Both the position numbers and the translations under genes were made by a program. A DNA stretch of 51,725 nt from an uncultured Bacteroidota bacterium (GTDB taxonomy: Bacteria > Bacteroidota > Bacteroidia > UKL13-3): positions 1-51,725 of the forward strand of contig CAIUQQ010000165.1 of assembly GCA_903901345.1 (NCBI GenBank), given 5' to 3'. Shown here one piece after another: positions 2,677 through 51,725 of this stretch; the stretch's first letter is position 1; each line of letters opens with the position of its first letter. Under the pieces are notes generated by a model that was given only the letters and a program-made list of their open reading frames with translations, was not told where the DNA came from and did no database searches.

Positions 2677-3729
2677 ATAACATTTTGGTGTTAATTCAAT
2701 AATTTCCAAATCCCATTTTTTGTTTAAATCGTAATGAATAAAACCTTTGCTAACGGTAAGCGGACTTTCAATATTGTTTTTATAAAGGCTCCCAGTTCCT
2801 AAACCTTGCGGAATTTGGGTATTTAAACTGCTACAAAATTGCGCAATGGCATTTAAACCAATATTACTTTCAAGGGCCGAAGTTAGCCACCAATTAATTC
2901 CTAATTCGTTGGCTTTATTTATCCAAAAATTACTTTTTTCAAAACCACCCAATAAAGTAGGTTTTAAAATAATAAATGGCGGTTTTATAAATTGCAATAG
3001 TGGCTTTATATTCTTTTCCTTTACGCCTATTAATTCTTCGTCAAGGGCAACAGGTATTGGCGATTTGGCACAAATTTCTTGCATAAAATCAAGCTGTTTT
3101 GCTTTAATTGGTTGCTCAATGCTGTGCACTTCAAAACGCTTTAATTCATTTAATTTTTCTAATGCATCATCATTGGCAAAAGCCCCATTTGCATCAGTTC
3201 TAATTTCTAATTTAAAAGCATTGTATCTGCTTCTAATTTTTTCTAATAACCTACATTCTTCATCAAAATCTAAAGCTCCAATTTTAAACTTAATGCAATT
3301 GAATCCATCTTCTATTTTTTGAGCAGCTTCTGCAAGCATTTCATCGGCTTTATTCATCCAAACCAAACCGTTTATAGCAATTGGTTGATTGATGATAAAA
3401 TTGTTTTCAAAAATTTTTCTTTCTCCCCCAAAATTCAAATCTGCCAAAGCTGTTTCTAATGCAAAAACTATAGAAGGCCAGTTCTCTAAATCAATATCTT
3501 CTTGTTTAAAACCATTGTTTAATTGGTTTAAAACAAATTGCAAATAATCCTCAAAATTATCAACCGCATCAATGCTTAATCCTTTTAAAGGCGCGGCTTC
3601 ACCAATCCCGATTTTTTGTGTACTAGCATCCGTTTTAACAATATAATAAACAGTATGTGTTTGCAAACTTCCACGGCTAGTTGTGGCCGGCTTATTAAAT
3701 TCAAGGATGTGTTTTTTGTAGGTGAACAT
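2671..3729 (-). CDS. menC: o-succinylbenzoate synthase (enolase superfamily)
   Basis: Probable MenC of 352 aa, which dehydrates SHCHC to o-succinylbenzoate in menaquinone synthesis. The N-terminal capping domain has the SRGSL signature I know from Bacteroidota MenC. The barrel shows the expected catalytic and metal residues: K147/K149 in IKFKIG, D179 in RTDANGAF, E205 in IEQPI, D230 in VALDEEL and K256 in ILKPTLLGG. Dipeptide epimerases share this fold, so the assignment rests on the N-terminal signature and overall length. No other men gene is in the window. It is the last gene of a minus-strand run (dciA-like, membrane TPR protein, menC) with a gap of only 12 bp. Confidence 0.85.
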   Translation of the reverse strand: MFTYKKHILEFNKPATTSRGSLQTHTVYYIVKTDASTQKIGIGEAAPLKGLSIDAVDNFEDYLQFVLNQLNNGFKQEDIDLENWPSIVFALETALADLNFGGERKIFENNFIINQPIAINGLVWMNKADEMLAEAAQKIEDGFNCIKFKIGALDFDEECRLLEKIRSRYNAFKLEIRTDANGAFANDDALEKLNELKRFEVHSIEQPIKAKQLDFMQEICAKSPIPVALDEELIGVKEKNIKPLLQFIKPPFIILKPTLLGGFEKSNFWINKANELGINWWLTSALESNIGLNAIAQFCSSLNTQIPQGLGTGSLYKNNIESPLTVSKGFIHYDLNKKWDLEIIELTPKCYL

Positions 3730-35515: not shown

Positions 35516-35591
35516 GGTTTATTGTTTTGAGATAGTTTATTTTTAATTCCACTTTTCGATTGGTGAAGACATCAACCTAAAATAAATGCTC

Positions 35592-35659
35592 GTCAGTTCG
35601 AGCGGAGTCGAGAACTTAACTTAGCGTTTTCAAAACATTTCGACTACGCTCAATGTGAC
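35592..35659. repeat. REP-like palindromic intergenic repeat, copy C
   Basis: TTCGAGCGGAGTCGAGAA (35597-35614) is an imperfect inverted copy of TTTCGACTACGCTCAA (35638-35653), with GTCA and TGAC at the outer ends. It shares its core with copy B at 26915-27013 and sits directly next to the terminator at 35662. Confidence 0.8.
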
Positions 35660-35661
35660 TA

Positions 35662-35700
35662 AAAAAAAGAGGCTATCCCAAAAGGATAGCCTCTTTTTTT
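35662..35700. terminator. Strong bidirectional intrinsic terminator
   Basis: A perfect 17-bp stem (35662-35678 with 35684-35700) has a 5-nt loop. The arm centre is GAGGCTATCC/GGATAGCCTC, flanked by seven A and seven T, so it works on both strands. It separates converging glyS and the T9SS protein gene. Confidence 0.93.
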
Positions 35701-35717
35701 AATGTATTAAAACCATT

Positions 35718-38700
35718 TTATTTCACCAATTTAACGGCTTTAGTTATTCCGCCTTGGGTAACTTTTAACACATAAAAACCTTTAGGTAAAACATTAGCAT
35801 TATCAATGTTTATAGTATTTAAACCCAATATTGCACTTACATTTCTTTCACTTACCAATGCACCTTTTGAATCGTAAATTAATAATTGAATATTTTTATC
35901 AGAAATAGCGTTTATTCTAATATTTAATTCATTATCAAATGGATTTGGTTGCACATTTACAATATCAAATGTGCCATTATCAGTATTGCTAATTTTAACA
36001 ATGTTTGAGTATGAGAAATTACCATCAAAATCTATTTGTTTCAATCTATAATATACATCAAAACCATTTGTATTAGCATCAACAAATGAGTAATTATTCA
36101 ATTTATTACTAGTTCCAGCTCCATTTACAAAACCAATATTGGTAAAGTTTTTAGCATCGTAACTGCGTTCTATTTCAAAACCATTATTATTAGTTTCCGA
36201 AGCAGTAGACCAAGCCAATTGAATATTATTTTTATCAATTTTAGTTGCGTTAAATGTTAACCATTTTACTGGCAAAGTATTAACCGATGAAGCACTTGCT
36301 ACTCCAAAATCGCCATAGGATGTTAGGCCTGCAGCTACCAATAAACCTGAAGTTAAAGTAGTATTTAAAGCTACCCAACCACCTGTAGATTCAGACCTTC
36401 TAACAATATACAAACTATCAGGACTTTGAATTCCACCAATTACTGAAGTATTAAAGTATAAATCGAAAGGTGCTGTTCCTGGCAAATAACCTGTTCCAAT
36501 TCCTGAATAATTAACAGAATACCAAGCCGAAGGACTTACTACGTTTGGTGTAAAAACAGCTGAATTATTAGTAGAAGCCGTAGAATTAGTTACAAAAACT
36601 GGACTGGCACTGCTAAAAACTGGTGAGCCTCCAAAACGACTTACAGATAAAACTCCATTAGATGCACCAATAGATGAAGTATATGAAACACTGATGTTTC
36701 CAGCTGAATAAAACGTAGCCGAAGTTACACTTTGTTGGCTTAACGAAACTGCATTTAACACATTAATATTGTTAATATAAATCTGATTTCCTAAACCTGA
36801 TCTGCTTCTAAAAGCAATTTGCACAAAAGTATTGTTGGCATAAGCCGATAAATCAACCGTAGCTTGGCGCCATTGTATTGTAGATGAAGGAGCATAAGTG
36901 CTACTTTGTGCTGCTGCTGTTCCTAAACTAGGATTACCATTTTGGTCTGTTAAAGTTTCAATAACCGTAAAAGTATTTCCACCATCAGTTGAAACTTCAA
37001 TATCAAAAGTATCTTCGTTTGATGTGCTTGTATTAGGTGCATGTGCCAATGAATAAAACAAAGTTGGATGCGCTTTTCCTGAAAAATTAAATGAAGAAGA
37101 AGAAACAATTCTTCCATTGTCGTTATAGTTAATATTATCGGCCATTAACGAAACGCTTGCACTTCCATTTGCTTGTGTAACTGATGCCGATGTTTTCCAA
37201 ATTGGTTTAACAGCATTGGCATTATTTATAGTCCATTGGGTTGTTAAATTAGTTCCTGATGACCTAAATGGTAAGGTGTTTTGCGGAGCAACCACATAAG
37301 TTAATACCATGGTGTCGTTAAAAATAATTGAATCGTTGGTAAAGTTGGTATATAATTTAATACTATAAGTTCCAGCAGTTGAAAAATTTAAAGCATTTGT
37401 ACCTGTAAATAATACACTGGTAGTATCATTTCTAAGTATAGAAGTTGTGGTATTTACTGGACCAATAACAGGACCATTATTTACTCTGTATCTAACTGCT
37501 ATTCCAGCTGCTCGTGTTTGCTGACCTTTGTTTTGAATTGTAACTCTAAAAGGTAAATTTACGCCCGTAGGCAAATTATATTTGTTAGATAAAGAAGACG
37601 AAACAGGAGCCACATCAATTTGTGGAATAGGGCGAGCAACACATTCTAACATTAATCTAGTAGTTTGACCACCAACAATTCCAGGAACTGCATAAATAGT
37701 TCCTACCACAGAATTGCTAATTGGTATATAGGATGCGGTAAGTGCATCATAAGCGGTCATAAAGTAAAACGGATTGTGCTCTCTTATTGGCACTTCAGTT
37801 TGTGATGTTCCTAAAAAATAATTTAAGCCATTGATAGATGTTCCACCTGCTATTCCAGCAATAACAGATTGATTAGTTACTGTAGGCAAATTAGAGATAG
37901 AAAAAACCATATACGTTCCTAAATCCGATGATTGAACTATTCTATTAGGTGATCTGCCAATTATTCTGCCTAAAGTATCCATTACCATACCGCAAACTGT
38001 ATCGCCAGTTGCATCAGAATTTGATACTAAATATGCTTTAATGGTTGTAATAATTGCTGAATCTTTTATAAAATATTTGGACCCCCAAAAATTAGGAACT
38101 GTTATTCCATTACTTCCCGAATGAGCTACTAATGTATCTCTATAATTCATTTCATAAGGGCTTACCAAATAGCTATTGGTTAATACATTATTTGCATTAT
38201 TATCATCGCTAGGAACCGATACAGTAATAATAGAAGCACCATCTATTAAAGGTAAATATGGAGCAAAACTTACTGTGGTACTTAAGCCAGCTGCTATAGT
38301 TGAAACAGTAGTTGATGTAGTATAACTATGAACGCCACTAATGGTTAAAGTTACCACTAAACTGCTTATAGCATTTACTCCATTGTTTGAAATATAAGCC
38401 CTAATAGAATCAGGAGTATTATATAACCTTGATACTTTTCCTTGCGCATAAATTGTTCTAACAGATGCATCATTTAATACAATGGGTGTGAATTGAAATG
38501 TTCTGCCAGTTCCAGGCAATGGACCAGCTGGCGAACTAATAGGATTTCTATAATTAACTGCATTATTTAAATAAAAACCTGTGTTAGGAACTGAACTTCC
38601 CCAAGCAATGGTAGAACCTTTTACTAAATGAAGATTTTGATTAGCAGTAGTCACACTTTTTCCTACTATTCCAACTGCAGCAAACCTTGCCGCACTTATT

Positions 38701-39311
38701 ACAATAGTGGTACTCCAATATCCATAAACGTATTCTATTACATTGGTTGTTTCGTATAATTTAATCTGAAAATTCATGGTGTCATATTGTCCACCTAAAC
38801 TAGCTTGTAATTTATCTTTTACATTTTTCCATTGTATAGTACAAACTCTAGAGCCATAAAAACCAGAAGTATAAACTCTATATTCAGCATTGGCATTGGT
38901 AGCACTTATTAAATCTTGTCCAAATACAAATAACATAGAACTGTCGTAACCAGCTGGAGATGAAGTATTCGAAGTAAAGGGTCCATTTTGTGGTGGTTGG
39001 GCCATAGTAGTAAACAAATAATGGCGAGAAGCAGAATCTCTACCCAATTTAATAAATCCGTTGGTACTAAATACAAACGAATCGTAAGGAGCGCCATTAA
39101 AGTTAAAGGTAAATCCAATTGGCAATGCACTAGAAAAAGCATCATCTTTATTGGCAGTAATAATGGAATCTCCATTAGACCCCAAATCTACATAGGTTCC
39201 CGCAGTGGTAGCAAAACCACCCGGCAAATAGTTTAACTGAGCTTTACTATTGTAAACCAAGTTTACAAATAATAATACCATTAAAATTTTTAGTGTAAAG
39301 TTTTTATCCAT
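35718..39311 (-). CDS. Large T9SS-exported surface protein
   Basis: Secreted protein of 1197 aa from the ATG at 39311; the frame is open to an ATG at 39338, but the later start gives a clean signal peptide (MDKNFTLKILMVLLFVNLVYNSKAQ). The N-terminal third has features seen in Bacteroidota cell-surface proteins (IGFTFNFNGAPYDSFVFSTNG), followed by CARDB-like beta domains, a MAM-like segment (FDIEVSTDGGNTF) and a fibronectin-like region (LAWSTASETNNNGFEIERS). It ends in a type A T9SS domain (VQPNPFDNELNIRINA to KAVKLVK). Enzymatic motifs are not seen; an adhesive or structural role is inferred. The upstream 300 bp carry no gene. Confidence 0.9.
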   Translation of the reverse strand: MDKNFTLKILMVLLFVNLVYNSKAQLNYLPGGFATTAGTYVDLGSNGDSIITANKDDAFSSALPIGFTFNFNGAPYDSFVFSTNGFIKLGRDSASRHYLFTTMAQPPQNGPFTSNTSSPAGYDSSMLFVFGQDLISATNANAEYRVYTSGFYGSRVCTIQWKNVKDKLQASLGGQYDTMNFQIKLYETTNVIEYVYGYWSTTIVISAARFAAVGIVGKSVTTANQNLHLVKGSTIAWGSSVPNTGFYLNNAVNYRNPISSPAGPLPGTGRTFQFTPIVLNDASVRTIYAQGKVSRLYNTPDSIRAYISNNGVNAISSLVVTLTISGVHSYTTSTTVSTIAAGLSTTVSFAPYLPLIDGASIITVSVPSDDNNANNVLTNSYLVSPYEMNYRDTLVAHSGSNGITVPNFWGSKYFIKDSAIITTIKAYLVSNSDATGDTVCGMVMDTLGRIIGRSPNRIVQSSDLGTYMVFSISNLPTVTNQSVIAGIAGGTSINGLNYFLGTSQTEVPIREHNPFYFMTAYDALTASYIPISNSVVGTIYAVPGIVGGQTTRLMLECVARPIPQIDVAPVSSSLSNKYNLPTGVNLPFRVTIQNKGQQTRAAGIAVRYRVNNGPVIGPVNTTTSILRNDTTSVLFTGTNALNFSTAGTYSIKLYTNFTNDSIIFNDTMVLTYVVAPQNTLPFRSSGTNLTTQWTINNANAVKPIWKTSASVTQANGSASVSLMADNINYNDNGRIVSSSSFNFSGKAHPTLFYSLAHAPNTSTSNEDTFDIEVSTDGGNTFTVIETLTDQNGNPSLGTAAAQSSTYAPSSTIQWRQATVDLSAYANNTFVQIAFRSRSGLGNQIYINNINVLNAVSLSQQSVTSATFYSAGNISVSYTSSIGASNGVLSVSRFGGSPVFSSASPVFVTNSTASTNNSAVFTPNVVSPSAWYSVNYSGIGTGYLPGTAPFDLYFNTSVIGGIQSPDSLYIVRRSESTGGWVALNTTLTSGLLVAAGLTSYGDFGVASASSVNTLPVKWLTFNATKIDKNNIQLAWSTASETNNNGFEIERSYDAKNFTNIGFVNGAGTSNKLNNYSFVDANTNGFDVYYRLKQIDFDGNFSYSNIVKISNTDNGTFDIVNVQPNPFDNELNIRINAISDKNIQLLIYDSKGALVSERNVSAILGLNTINIDNANVLPKGFYVLKVTQGGITKAVKLVK

Positions 39312-39619
39312 AATATTTGTTATTAAATTGAATAGCAATGTATATCAATATTATAAACTCGTCAAGTCATATTTACAAATTCTTAAAAATATATTATTCA
39401 AAATGGTGGCAATGGTTGAATCCATTAAGATTTAAAGAATTAAAGAAAGAAAAAATTAAAGGAAGAAAAGTATCTTTTCAAATATTTTAAGCTTAAAATG
39501 AAGGTTTTGGAAAATAATATTCAAACAAAAAACAGCAAATAATTATAGAAATTAGATGCTATTTTTTGTTTTAAAATTGAATAAATAAGTATAAAAATAT
39601 GCGAGTATTTTTAATGAAT
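39312..39619. other. Gene-poor AT-rich interval
   Basis: About 308 bp between the T9SS protein start and the end of the acyltransferase gene. It is very A-rich with runs such as ATTAAAGAAAGAAAAAATTA. I see no frame longer than a few dozen codons, no terminator hairpin and no recognisable RNA. It should hold the promoter of the T9SS gene, but no consensus element stands out. Confidence 0.6.
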
Positions 39620-40486
39620 TTAGCTTCTTTTGTGCTTCCATCTTCTGTGGCTCCAAAGCCAAATTTCTGGTTGATTTATAATGTCGGCTTCTAGTAATTT
39701 ATTAAACGTTTCTGTAATATAAAAATCAGCAGTGGTTTGAGGTTCCATAGTAATTATATCTATTTTTATTTCATAGTAACCTCGCTTAGGTTTTATGATA
39801 TGACAATAAACAACCGGATAATTAAACTTTTTTGCTAATTTTTCAGCACCCATAAAAACGGGAGTGTCTTGATTTAAAAAAGTGAGCCAATGGGCATTTT
39901 CTTTACTTGGTGTTTGGTCGGAAATAAATCCAGTGCCTGTTAATTTATTTTTATTGGCAATCATTCCACGCAAAGTGTTTTCCATGGTGATCATTTGAAT
40001 GCCAAATTTTTCACGCATGTTTTTGGTAAACCATTCAAAAAAAGGACTGCTTAATTTATGATAAATTCCTACAATATTTGCCTTGCCTTCTAAGTGCCAA
40101 ATAGTGGGCAACCATTCCCAATTTCCCATATGACCCGTTAAAATAACAAAGCTTTTATTTTGATTGATAATGTCATCCATTACTTCCAAATTAGTGTAAA
40201 CACCATGTTTCTTCAGCCCGTTTTTACTAATGGTAAGTAATTTAAAAGTTTCTAAAATGGTATCGAATAAATGCGAGTAAAACTTTTTAGCTATATCATG
40301 TATTTCTTTTTCAGAATAAGTTGGAAATGAATTACACAAGTTTTCATAAACCACTTTTTTACGGTAGCCTATCATGTTAAAAGCCAAAAAGCACAAACCA
40401 TCACTTAATAAATACAGCAGTGGAAAAGGCAGCAAAGCCAATAAATACAAGGGAATAGAATAAATATGGTATAAAAACTTTTTCAT
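39620..40486 (-). CDS. Lipid A biosynthesis acyltransferase (LpxL/HtrB family)
   Basis: Inner-membrane acyltransferase of 288 aa that should add a secondary acyl chain to a lipid A precursor. An N-terminal hydrophobic anchor (about residues 8-40) precedes the catalytic HMGNWE (H119, E124, the H-x4-D/E dyad), then FISDQTPSKENAHWLTFLNQDTP, which is typical of the family. The length is normal. The start codon and its upstream region are part of a 69-bp sequence that is repeated 694 bp further on, behind the toxin-antitoxin pair. Confidence 0.92.
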   Translation of the reverse strand: MKKFLYHIYSIPLYLLALLPFPLLYLLSDGLCFLAFNMIGYRKKVVYENLCNSFPTYSEKEIHDIAKKFYSHLFDTILETFKLLTISKNGLKKHGVYTNLEVMDDIINQNKSFVILTGHMGNWEWLPTIWHLEGKANIVGIYHKLSSPFFEWFTKNMREKFGIQMITMENTLRGMIANKNKLTGTGFISDQTPSKENAHWLTFLNQDTPVFMGAEKLAKKFNYPVVYCHIIKPKRGYYEIKIDIITMEPQTTADFYITETFNKLLEADIINQPEIWLWSHRRWKHKRS

Positions 40487-40548
40487 TTTATTACTCGCAA
40501 TAATAACAAGATAATTTCATCCTAAAAATATTCATCTAAAAATCTTTA
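40480..40548. repeat. Direct repeat, left copy, flanking the toxin-antitoxin cassette
   Basis: A 69-bp sequence matches 41174-41242 at 62 of 69 positions, with the last 38 bp (from 40511, ATAATTTCATCC onward) identical. This copy contains the lpxL-family start codon (CAT at 40484-40486). Confidence 0.92.
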
Positions 40549-40591
40549 CGTGATGTACTTATTTACATCTTGCTTTTTCAGAATCAAATTT

Positions 40592-40900
40592 TTAATAAAT
40601 AATTGGGTCTTGACTCGTATGTCTAATTCTCAAAATGAATATATGTGATTCTGTAATTTTATATGTAATGCGATAACTAAAAACTGTTACTGACCGATAA
40701 CTTCCATCATTTTCAATTTTAAACTTATCAACTTCATATATTCCAGCATTTTCTTTCAGAACAGCAACATGTTCTAAAATTGCTAGCTTAACTGTTTGTG
40801 CACCTTGAGGAGATTCTTGTTTTATATATTGTATAGCTTGTTTAAAATAAAGTTTGGCTTCATCATCCCATTGAATGATTCTCTTTTTCTTAATTACCAC
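40592..40900 (-). CDS. RelE/ParE-family toxin
   Basis: Toxin-like protein of 102 aa. IIQWDDEAKLYFKQAIQYIKQ at the N-terminus, VDKFKIENDGSYRSVTVFSYRITYKI in the middle and ILRIRHTSQDP at the end match the ParE/RelE fold and its terminal strand. ParE members poison gyrase and RelE members cut mRNA; the RHTSQDP ending favours ParE, but this is a family-level guess. Its start overlaps the antitoxin gene by 7 bp. The pair sits between perfect parts of a direct repeat. Confidence 0.85.
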   Translation of the reverse strand: MVIKKKRIIQWDDEAKLYFKQAIQYIKQESPQGAQTVKLAILEHVAVLKENAGIYEVDKFKIENDGSYRSVTVFSYRITYKITESHIFILRIRHTSQDPIIY

Positions 40901-41118
40901 TCTTTACTTTCTACTTCAAGGTCATCGTGAGCTGTAAATTTGCCATTCTCTATCCTTGTTTCAGCTGCTTTCAATTCATTGTTGTATTGCATAACTGATA
41001 CAGCATCATTCTTTTTATTCGACTTTTTAAAAACAGCCATCACTTGTTCTAAAAGACTTTCGTCTGTTGTACTCAACAGTTTATTTATCAATTCGTATTT
41101 TACTACTTCAATGTTCAT
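40894..41118 (-). CDS. Antitoxin of a ParE-type module
   Basis: Small protein of 74 aa preceding the toxin gene, the usual order. Its N-terminus (MNIEVVKYELINKLLSTTDESLLEQVMAVF) is the helical segment seen in Bacteroidota antitoxins of this kind, and the C-terminal half is acidic (YNNELKAAETRIENGKFTAHDDLEVE) and probably wraps the toxin. No classical ribbon-helix-helix motif is obvious, so DNA binding is uncertain. A TATATTTG promoter element lies 16 bp upstream inside the cassette. Confidence 0.82.
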   Translation of the reverse strand: MNIEVVKYELINKLLSTTDESLLEQVMAVFKKSNKKNDAVSVMQYNNELKAAETRIENGKFTAHDDLEVESKEW

Positions 41119-41134
41119 ATTTTAAAAGTTTGTA

Positions 41135-41142
41135 CAAATATA
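41135..41142 (-). promoter_or_regulatory. Bacteroidota -7 element for the toxin-antitoxin operon
   Basis: TATATTTG on the minus strand lies 16 bp ahead of the antitoxin ATG, leaving a leader of about 10 nt. It lies within the inserted segment, so the cassette carries its own promoter. Confidence 0.5.
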
Positions 41143-41173
41143 TAAGTTTATGTTTTAAAATTGTTGGTTTGAA

Positions 41174-41242
41174 TTTTCATTTATTTACCCGCAATAACAA
41201 TGAAATAATTTCATCCTAAAAATATTCATCTAAAAATCTTTA
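41174..41242. repeat. Direct repeat, right copy, flanking the toxin-antitoxin cassette
   Basis: The second copy of the 69-bp repeat ends 12 bp before the start of the spermidine-synthase-like gene. It still contains a minus-strand ATG AAA (41175-41180) matching the start of the acyltransferase gene, after which the sequence diverges. Confidence 0.92.
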
Positions 41243-41959: not shown

Positions 41960-42021
41960 AACCACATAGACACATAGATTACATAGTTTATTAGCTATGT
42001 TTACTATGTTCCTATGTGGTT
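41960..42021. repeat. CACATAG palindromic intergenic repeat
   Basis: AACCACATAG (41960-41969) and CTATGTGGTT (42012-42021) are perfect inverted ends. Each arm of about 27 nt holds three ACATAG units spaced 9 nt apart. A lone GACACATAG follows near 42043-42051. Similar sequences are frequent between genes in Bacteroidota, from memory. Confidence 0.8.
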
Positions 42022-51349: not shown

Positions 51350-51523
51350 ATACAAAAACGTTGTTTTTTTCGATTAAAAATATTTTGCAAAATAAGGATT
51401 TTATAGCATCAAAATGATACTTTTTTTATAAAGCAAATATGAATTAGCTAAAATTAAACCAACTACATTTTATTGACTATTTGGCGCAATTTTAAAATTC
51501 AAAATTTCTTACCAGCTTTATAA

Positions 51524-51531
51524 TATATTTG
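51524..51531 (+). promoter_or_regulatory. Bacteroidota -7 element for prmA
   Basis: TATATTTG lies 22 bp ahead of the ATG at 51554. A TTTC at 51505-51508 is 15 bp upstream, somewhat close for a -33 box. Confidence 0.45.
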
Positions 51532-51553
51532 CACATCAAAAAGTAATCAAACT

Positions 51554-51725
51554 ATGAGCAATTACAAAGTGTTTCAAATAAACTGCAATCCACAATTAGC
51601 TGAACTTTTAATAGCTGAATTGGCCGAAATTGGCTTTGAAGGTTTTTTAGAAAACGACCATGGTTTTGAAGCGTATTTAGAAGAAGAAGCTTTCGATGAA
51701 ACATTGTTTAATGAAATTATTTTTA
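51554..51725 (+). CDS. prmA: Ribosomal protein L11 methyltransferase, 5' part
   Basis: The first 57 codons of a gene cut by the window end. The product begins MSNYKVFQINCNPQLAELL and contains AELAEIGFEGFLEND and an acidic EAYLEEEAFDE, which fits the N-terminal substrate-recognition domain of PrmA, the enzyme that methylates ribosomal protein L11. The methyltransferase domain lies outside the window, so the call rests on the N-terminal domain only. Confidence 0.7.
   Translation, partial: MSNYKVFQINCNPQLAELLIAELAEIGFEGFLENDHGFEAYLEEEAFDETLFNEIIF

What the first reader, a model, noticed from the sequence alone, without database searches (positions are those of the whole stretch)
40480..41242. 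Toxin-antitoxin cassette bracketed by 69-bp direct repeats copied from the divergent promoter region
Seen in sequence: 40480-40548 and 41174-41242 match at 62/69 positions, with 38 identical. The left copy holds the start codon and upstream region of the LpxL-family gene. The right copy ends 12 bp before the next gene and still contains a fossil ATG AAA of the acyltransferase. The ParE-type module with its own promoter lies between. Inference: a TA unit of about 625 bp entered a very short divergent intergenic region and duplicated it, leaving both neighbours with intact upstream sequence. There is no transposase, so this may be a minimal or trans-mobilised TA cassette.
Basis: partly seen in the sequence, partly recalled or inferred. 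Interest (0 to 1): 0.65.

Follow-up and report, generated by a model that had tools for sequence, protein, structure and literature searches.

The report
Toxin-antitoxin cassette between duplicated gene ends
A small toxin-antitoxin gene pair has slipped between two bacterial genes and left a second copy of their shared control region on its other side; the same scar, a duplicated gene end with no transposase, recurs around many toxin-antitoxin pairs in these bacteria, which suggests how such genes enter chromosomes without harming their neighbours.

Summary
40480-40548 and 41174-41242 match at 62/69 positions, bracket a ParE-type toxin-antitoxin (TA) pair, and are the strongest direct repeat in the window. 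A relative (G008) has no TA and one copy, so an empty site exists; G001 and L071 carry the TA between two copies; G002 keeps both copies but a Y1 transposase replaces the TA genes.

The pattern is general. Other TA loci in the family and class sit between copies of a local gene end: prmA 3' (118-130 bp; G000 itself is the empty site), tatD 3' (262), FAA-hydrolase 5' (77), thioesterase 5' (55), dtd 5' (46), cyclase 5' (56), aminotransferase 3' (74). Brackets occur at 8/27 class-wide ParE loci against 0/29 acetyltransferase loci.

Where the duplicated end is coding, functional and fossil copies differ mainly at synonymous sites (51:15; about 21% synonymous expected). The copies therefore diverged in separate lineages. 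I favour capture by homology-anchored recombination with related donor DNA over a transposase-type target duplication. Later recombination between copies explains copy homogenisation and may delete the TA cleanly.

Insertion with long target duplication is known for restriction-modification genes; this is a TA variant, with new evidence on where the second copy comes from.

The parts
40480..40548 (.). left repeat copy: start codon and upstream region of lpxL-like gene (functional copy for lpxL)
41174..41242 (.). right repeat copy: upstream region of speE-like gene (functional half) plus fossil lpxL start (CAT 41178-41180)
40549..41173 (.). inserted TA cassette, 625 bp; absent from G008
   Evidence: gap of 625 in the window against -69 in G008
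40592..40900 (-). ParE/RelE-type toxin, 102 aa
   Evidence: PF05016 E 9e-11; low-confidence model with helix-helix-three-strand order
40894..41118 (-). antitoxin, 74 aa, overlaps the toxin gene by 7 nt; no Pfam or NCBIfam hit
39620..40486 (-). lpxL-like lipid A acyltransferase gene, left neighbour
   Evidence: PF03279
41255..41938 (+). speE-like (spermine/spermidine synthase fold) gene, right neighbour
   Evidence: PF01564 E 2e-8
51498..51725 (+). 5' part of prmA, cut by the contig end; a second TA insertion site that is empty in this genome (rest on contig C123)

Best explanation
This is a horizontally acquired type II (ParE/RelE-type) TA cassette that sits between two copies of the lpxL/speE divergent control region. 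Shown: one copy in an empty relative, two copies around the TA in three genomes, homogenisation between copies, and the same arrangement at many other TA loci. Inferred: a short linear DNA from a related cell, carrying the TA joined to that cell's version of a conserved gene end, paired with the matching gene end in the recipient. It was joined to the chromosome by homology on one side and by an illegitimate (or single-crossover) joint on the other, so the donor and recipient versions of the gene end now flank the TA. Only joints that left a whole gene end or promoter on each side survived, so brackets are found at gene ends and have variable length. Afterwards the two copies convert each other, and recombination between them can delete the TA cleanly and restore an apparent empty site.
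For: Empty site with one copy in G008; occupied in G000, G001 and L071; G002 occupied state with the TA genes replaced. Second locus: prmA 3' end, TA between 118-130-bp copies in G001/G007/G008, contiguous single copy in G000. FAA-hydrolase 5' end: occupied in G003/G004, single copy in G005/G001/G002/G008. Generality: tight brackets at 12/91 TA loci against 0/1565 positions; 12/88 against 7/265 small genes or gene pairs (p=3e-4); class-wide 8/27 ParE, 3/27 PIN, 0/29 acetyltransferase. Copies of different ancestry: 51 synonymous against 15 nonsynonymous differences over eight gene-end comparisons (p about 3e-22; 3e-12 even if 35% synonymous is expected); tatD in G006 13/13 at third positions. 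TA at tatD 95% identical between lineages whose tatD is about 73-83% identical, at the same insertion point: horizontal transfer. Homogenisation: L071 copies 97% identical, both prmA copies of G008 share variants. No plasmid or phage carrier found.
Against: At the window locus only 2-3 codons lie in the repeat, so the codon test cannot be made there; the divergence of its non-functional halves also fits plain in-situ duplication plus drift. FAA hydrolase (1 S: 2 N) and prmA of G008 (0: 2) do not show the synonymous excess; 30 of the 51 synonymous differences come from the two tatD comparisons. Synonymous differences could also arise if the functional copy was later overwritten by allelic exchange, so they show recombination with relatives but not at which step. 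At tatD in G001 and G002 the gene is native right up to the TA joint. Brackets are also found around some non-TA genes. No experiment; all genomes near the window appear to be metagenome assemblies.
Confidence: 0.55

Rival explanations
1. In-situ long target duplication: the TA DNA was inserted at a widely staggered or resected break (or by an unknown trans-acting transposase), fill-in made two copies of the recipient's own sequence, and the copies drifted, with later allelic exchange at the functional copy.
For: Clean empty sites with one copy; at the window locus the left half has drifted in the right copy and the right half in the left copy, as expected for a duplicate with split function; FAA-hydrolase fossil differs 1 S: 2 N. 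Reported pattern for restriction-modification genes (PMC3874152; PMC1643837).
Against: Synonymous excess between copies at other loci; duplication length varies from 46 to 262 bp, unlike a transposase with a fixed cut; no common cassette ends were noticed.
Confidence: 0.3
2. RAYT/REP-linked mobility: a Y1 (IS200-like) transposase acting on palindromes moved the cassette.
For: In G002 a Y1_Tnp gene flanked by TTGCAGGCGTCCTCGCCTGCAA occupies the same slot; a half-copy of a dispersed palindrome lies at the left inner edge of the cassette in G001 and L071, and related palindromes bracket other TA loci.
Against: Y1 enzymes are not known to make long target duplications (general knowledge); the palindromes differ between cassettes; the repeats here are unique local sequence.
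Confidence: 0.05
3. Ordinary coincidence: TA genes lie in repeat-rich intergenic DNA, so repeats flank them by chance.
For: Some brackets are clearly dispersed or palindromic repeats (L142, L151, L154, L157, L193, L197, L214), and TA loci may lie in repeat-rich regions.
Against: 0/1565 control positions and 7/265 small genes against 12-14% of TA loci; eight brackets are unique gene ends, with empty sites shown at three of them.
Confidence: 0.08

Closest known systems
Insertion with long target duplication of restriction-modification genes (Nobusato et al. 2000, H. pylori; Furuta et al. 2010; described in PMC3874152 and PMC1643837)
   Same: addiction-type gene pair, no linked mobile element, long variable (order of 100 bp) direct repeats of local sequence, single copy in the empty strain
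   Different: cargo is a type II TA, host group is Bacteroidia, and here functional and fossil copies are shown to differ mainly at synonymous sites, which points to two ancestries for the copies
Homology-facilitated illegitimate recombination (described in PMC3240628; invoked for T6SS effector-immunity modules in PMC5361080)
   Same: homology at one end anchors foreign DNA, the other end joins illegitimately; the recipient's displaced gene end stays downstream of the new module
   Different: no selection marker or experiment here; both copies of a short gene end kept around a TA pair
Direct repeats around a TA region in Mycoplasma mycoides (PMC8562856)
   Same: flanking direct repeats noted around a chromosomal TA pair and read as a recombination scar
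   Different: different TA type; one region, without empty-site or codon analysis in the passages read

Membership tests
Insertion with long target duplication | empty relative carries exactly one copy of the flanking repeat | tested here: met
   G008 for lpxL/speE; G000 for prmA; G005 for FAA hydrolase
Insertion with long target duplication | duplication long (tens to hundreds of bp) and variable between loci | tested here: met
   46-262 bp over eight gene-end loci
Insertion with long target duplication | both copies derive from the recipient's own target | tested here: inconclusive
   synonymous excess (51:15) argues against it at several loci; not testable at the window locus
Type II toxin-antitoxin system (ParE/RelE-type) | toxin domain and adjacent overlapping small antitoxin gene | tested here: met
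   PF05016 E 9e-11 and a 7-nt overlap with a 74-aa ORF
Type II toxin-antitoxin system (ParE/RelE-type) | toxin inhibits growth and antitoxin neutralises it | not testable with these tools
   no experiment possible
DNA transposon or MITE | transposase in the element, or terminal inverted repeats with a short fixed target duplication | tested here: not met
   no transposase ORF in the 625-bp cassette; the repeat finder lists no inverted repeat joining the cassette ends; duplication long and variable
Integron gene cassette | repeat is an attC site shared with other cassettes | tested here: not met
   the repeat is the native promoter region and occurs only at this locus; single copy in the empty relative
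Homology-facilitated illegitimate recombination product | donor allele on one side, recipient allele on the other | tested here: inconclusive
   supported by synonymous excess and tatD/TA discordance; donor strains not identified

The most novel reading that the evidence does not exclude
Chromosomal TA modules in Bacteroidia spread as transposase-free cassettes that ride on a short piece of a conserved neighbour gene: the piece serves as homology anchor, the recipient ends up with both versions of the gene end around the TA, the neighbours stay intact, and the two versions later allow RecA-type recombination to excise or exchange the TA. The brackets would then be a built-in homology arm rather than a target-site duplication.
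Probability: 0.4. Interest if true: 0.75.

Novelty: new variant of a known kind. Interest (0 to 1): 0.62.

Why it matters
How chromosomal TA modules, which carry no transposase or integrase, enter genomes is an old open question. Here there are several clean before/after sites, a class-wide statistical signal, and a codon test that separates 'duplicated in place' from 'copied in from a relative'. Both readings are directly testable in a naturally transformable laboratory bacterium, and the fossils give scars for mapping TA gain and loss.

Tried and rejected
Dispersed-repeat origin of the 69-bp unit: only one locus in the genome. Carrier plasmid, phage or virus: no relative of the toxin in the plasmid, phage or viral collections. 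Y1 transposase as mover: seen only as a later replacement in G002. Polarity at the window locus (gain before the split of G000/G001/G002/L071, or loss in G008): not resolved; G008 is mosaic (lpxL 94.7% to G001, speE 88%), and clean excision would look like a never-occupied site. Synteny in G003-G006: the stretch upstream of speE is not shared. Comparison of 39 kb of the window with G001 showed no other insertion above 200 bp, so it gave no within-window control; controls were taken from TA loci instead. Toxin structure: model of low confidence (mean pLDDT 56.7), so not searched further. PDB sequence search gave no hit.

Full report
What is there. The window locus reads lpxL-like gene (-) / left copy / TA pair (-) / right copy / speE-like gene (+). 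The two 69-bp copies match at 62/69 positions, with the last 38 identical, and are the strongest direct repeat of the window by 16 orders of magnitude in E-value. The unit is unique in the genome. The toxin is PF05016 (E 9e-11); the 74-aa antitoxin has no Pfam or NCBIfam match.

Empty and occupied states. In same-genus genomes, G008 has one copy and no TA: lpxL and speE start codons are 74 bp apart, and alignment shows the insertion as a 625-bp gap against a 69-bp overlap. G001 and L071 (record JAIOZA010000045.1, a Bacteroidia assembly) have the TA between two copies. G002 has both copies, but the TA genes are gone, a Y1_Tnp gene with palindromic flanks stands there (PF01797), and a stretch upstream of the antitoxin start is still next to the right copy. 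The occupied state was therefore ancestral to G002.

Evolution of the two copies. The left half is conserved in the left copy (lpxL side) and drifted in the right copy; the right half is conserved in the right copy (speE side) and drifted in the left copies of G001/G002. Right copies of G000, G001 and G002 share derived changes, so they stem from one event; in L071 the right copy has been overwritten by the left (97% identity). Flank trees place G000 with L071, but G008 is mosaic across the site, so gain before the split and loss in G008 cannot be told apart.

The pattern is not unique to this locus. I fetched 100 ParE-type loci in the family. 28 are bracketed at a loose threshold. At a tight threshold 12/91 TA loci against 0/1565 positions in the same sequences are bracketed; against called small genes or gene pairs the figures are 12/88 and 7/265 (Fisher p 3e-4), and one of those seven controls looks like another TA type, a nucleotidyltransferase/HEPN-like pair by sequence appearance, not by a family search. 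Class-wide, 8/27 ParE and 3/27 PIN loci but 0/29 acetyltransferase loci are bracketed. Loci in related genomes are not independent, so these p-values are optimistic.

What the brackets are. Some are dispersed or palindromic repeats. Eight are unique ends of a neighbouring gene, families named by Pfam: lpxL/speE promoter (69-73 bp), prmA 3' (118-130), tatD 3' (262), FAA hydrolase 5' (77), thioesterase 5' (55), dtd 5' (46), cyclase 5' (56), class-V aminotransferase 3' (74). Others look like duplicated terminators of 44-46 bp (L159, L181). At prmA the TA is present in G001, G007 and G008, while G000, the window's own genome, has a contiguous single copy; the window ends inside that prmA gene. At FAA hydrolase, G003/G004 are occupied and G005, G001, G002 and G008 carry one copy.

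Where the second copy comes from. If a fossil were made in place and then decayed, its differences from the functional end should ignore codon positions. Over eight comparisons I count 51 synonymous and 15 nonsynonymous differences, about 21% synonymous being expected (p about 3e-22; 3e-12 at 35% expected; without tatD 21:15, p 4e-4 at 30% expected). In G006 all 13 differences over 85 codons of tatD are synonymous. So copies diverged while both were working genes, in different lineages. At tatD the TA is 95% identical between G006 and G001/G002, whereas tatD is about 73-83% identical, at the same insertion point: the TA moved horizontally. This fits capture of a donor fragment anchored in a shared gene end (homology-facilitated illegitimate recombination, described in PMC3240628, and invoked for effector-immunity modules in PMC5361080). 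It does not exclude in-situ duplication followed by allelic exchange.

Comparison with the known. Restriction-modification genes insert with long and variable target duplications of the order of 100 bp (PMC3874152; PMC1643837). Direct repeats around one mycoplasma TA region have been noted (PMC8562856). In the eight literature searches made I found no report of this pattern for ParE/RelE-type TA pairs or of the codon test; subscription papers, including work on horizontal transfer of E. coli chromosomal TAs that I recall but could not read, are not held, so novelty is only as good as that search.

Limits. Near genomes appear to be metagenome assemblies; collapsed or missing repeats could fake an empty site, though single-copy sites here are contiguous in their contigs and several assemblies agree. 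The codon test cannot be applied to the window locus itself.

Noticed in passing
L051:1616-2320 (G002): Y1 (IS200-like, RAYT-type) transposase gene flanked by TTGCAGGCGTCCTCGCCTGCAA sits in the slot of the TA genes between the same two repeats.
   Followed up: partly
window 40549-40580 and L071, L151, L154, L157: A dispersed palindrome (about CACTCGCTCGCATCTTGCGAGTG) leaves a half-copy at the left inner edge of the TA cassette in G001/L071, and related copies bracket other TA loci.
   Followed up: partly
L034:1-1115 (G053): A close homologue of this TA (74% toxin identity) lies inside a tandem array of 74-bp units, with units on both sides.
   Followed up: no
L071:4001-4291: Toxin of this relative is shortened at ...RIRHTS by a stop codon (96 instead of 102 aa).
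   Followed up: no
window 35524-39620: A 4.1-kb stretch with a large secreted-type gene is missing between the flanks in G008.
   Followed up: no
L147:1899-2844 (G034): A gene pair that looks like nucleotidyltransferase/HEPN lies between 33-bp copies that overlap the 3' end of the upstream 346-aa gene, the same arrangement with another TA-like pair.
   Followed up: no
window 41960-42021: 27-nt inverted repeat with 8-nt loop downstream of the speE-like gene.
   Followed up: no
L354:2884-2984 and 3389-3489 (G006): At the tatD locus a further 101-bp stretch occurs both just before and after the fossil tatD end (97%), a second duplication at the right-hand joint.
   Followed up: no
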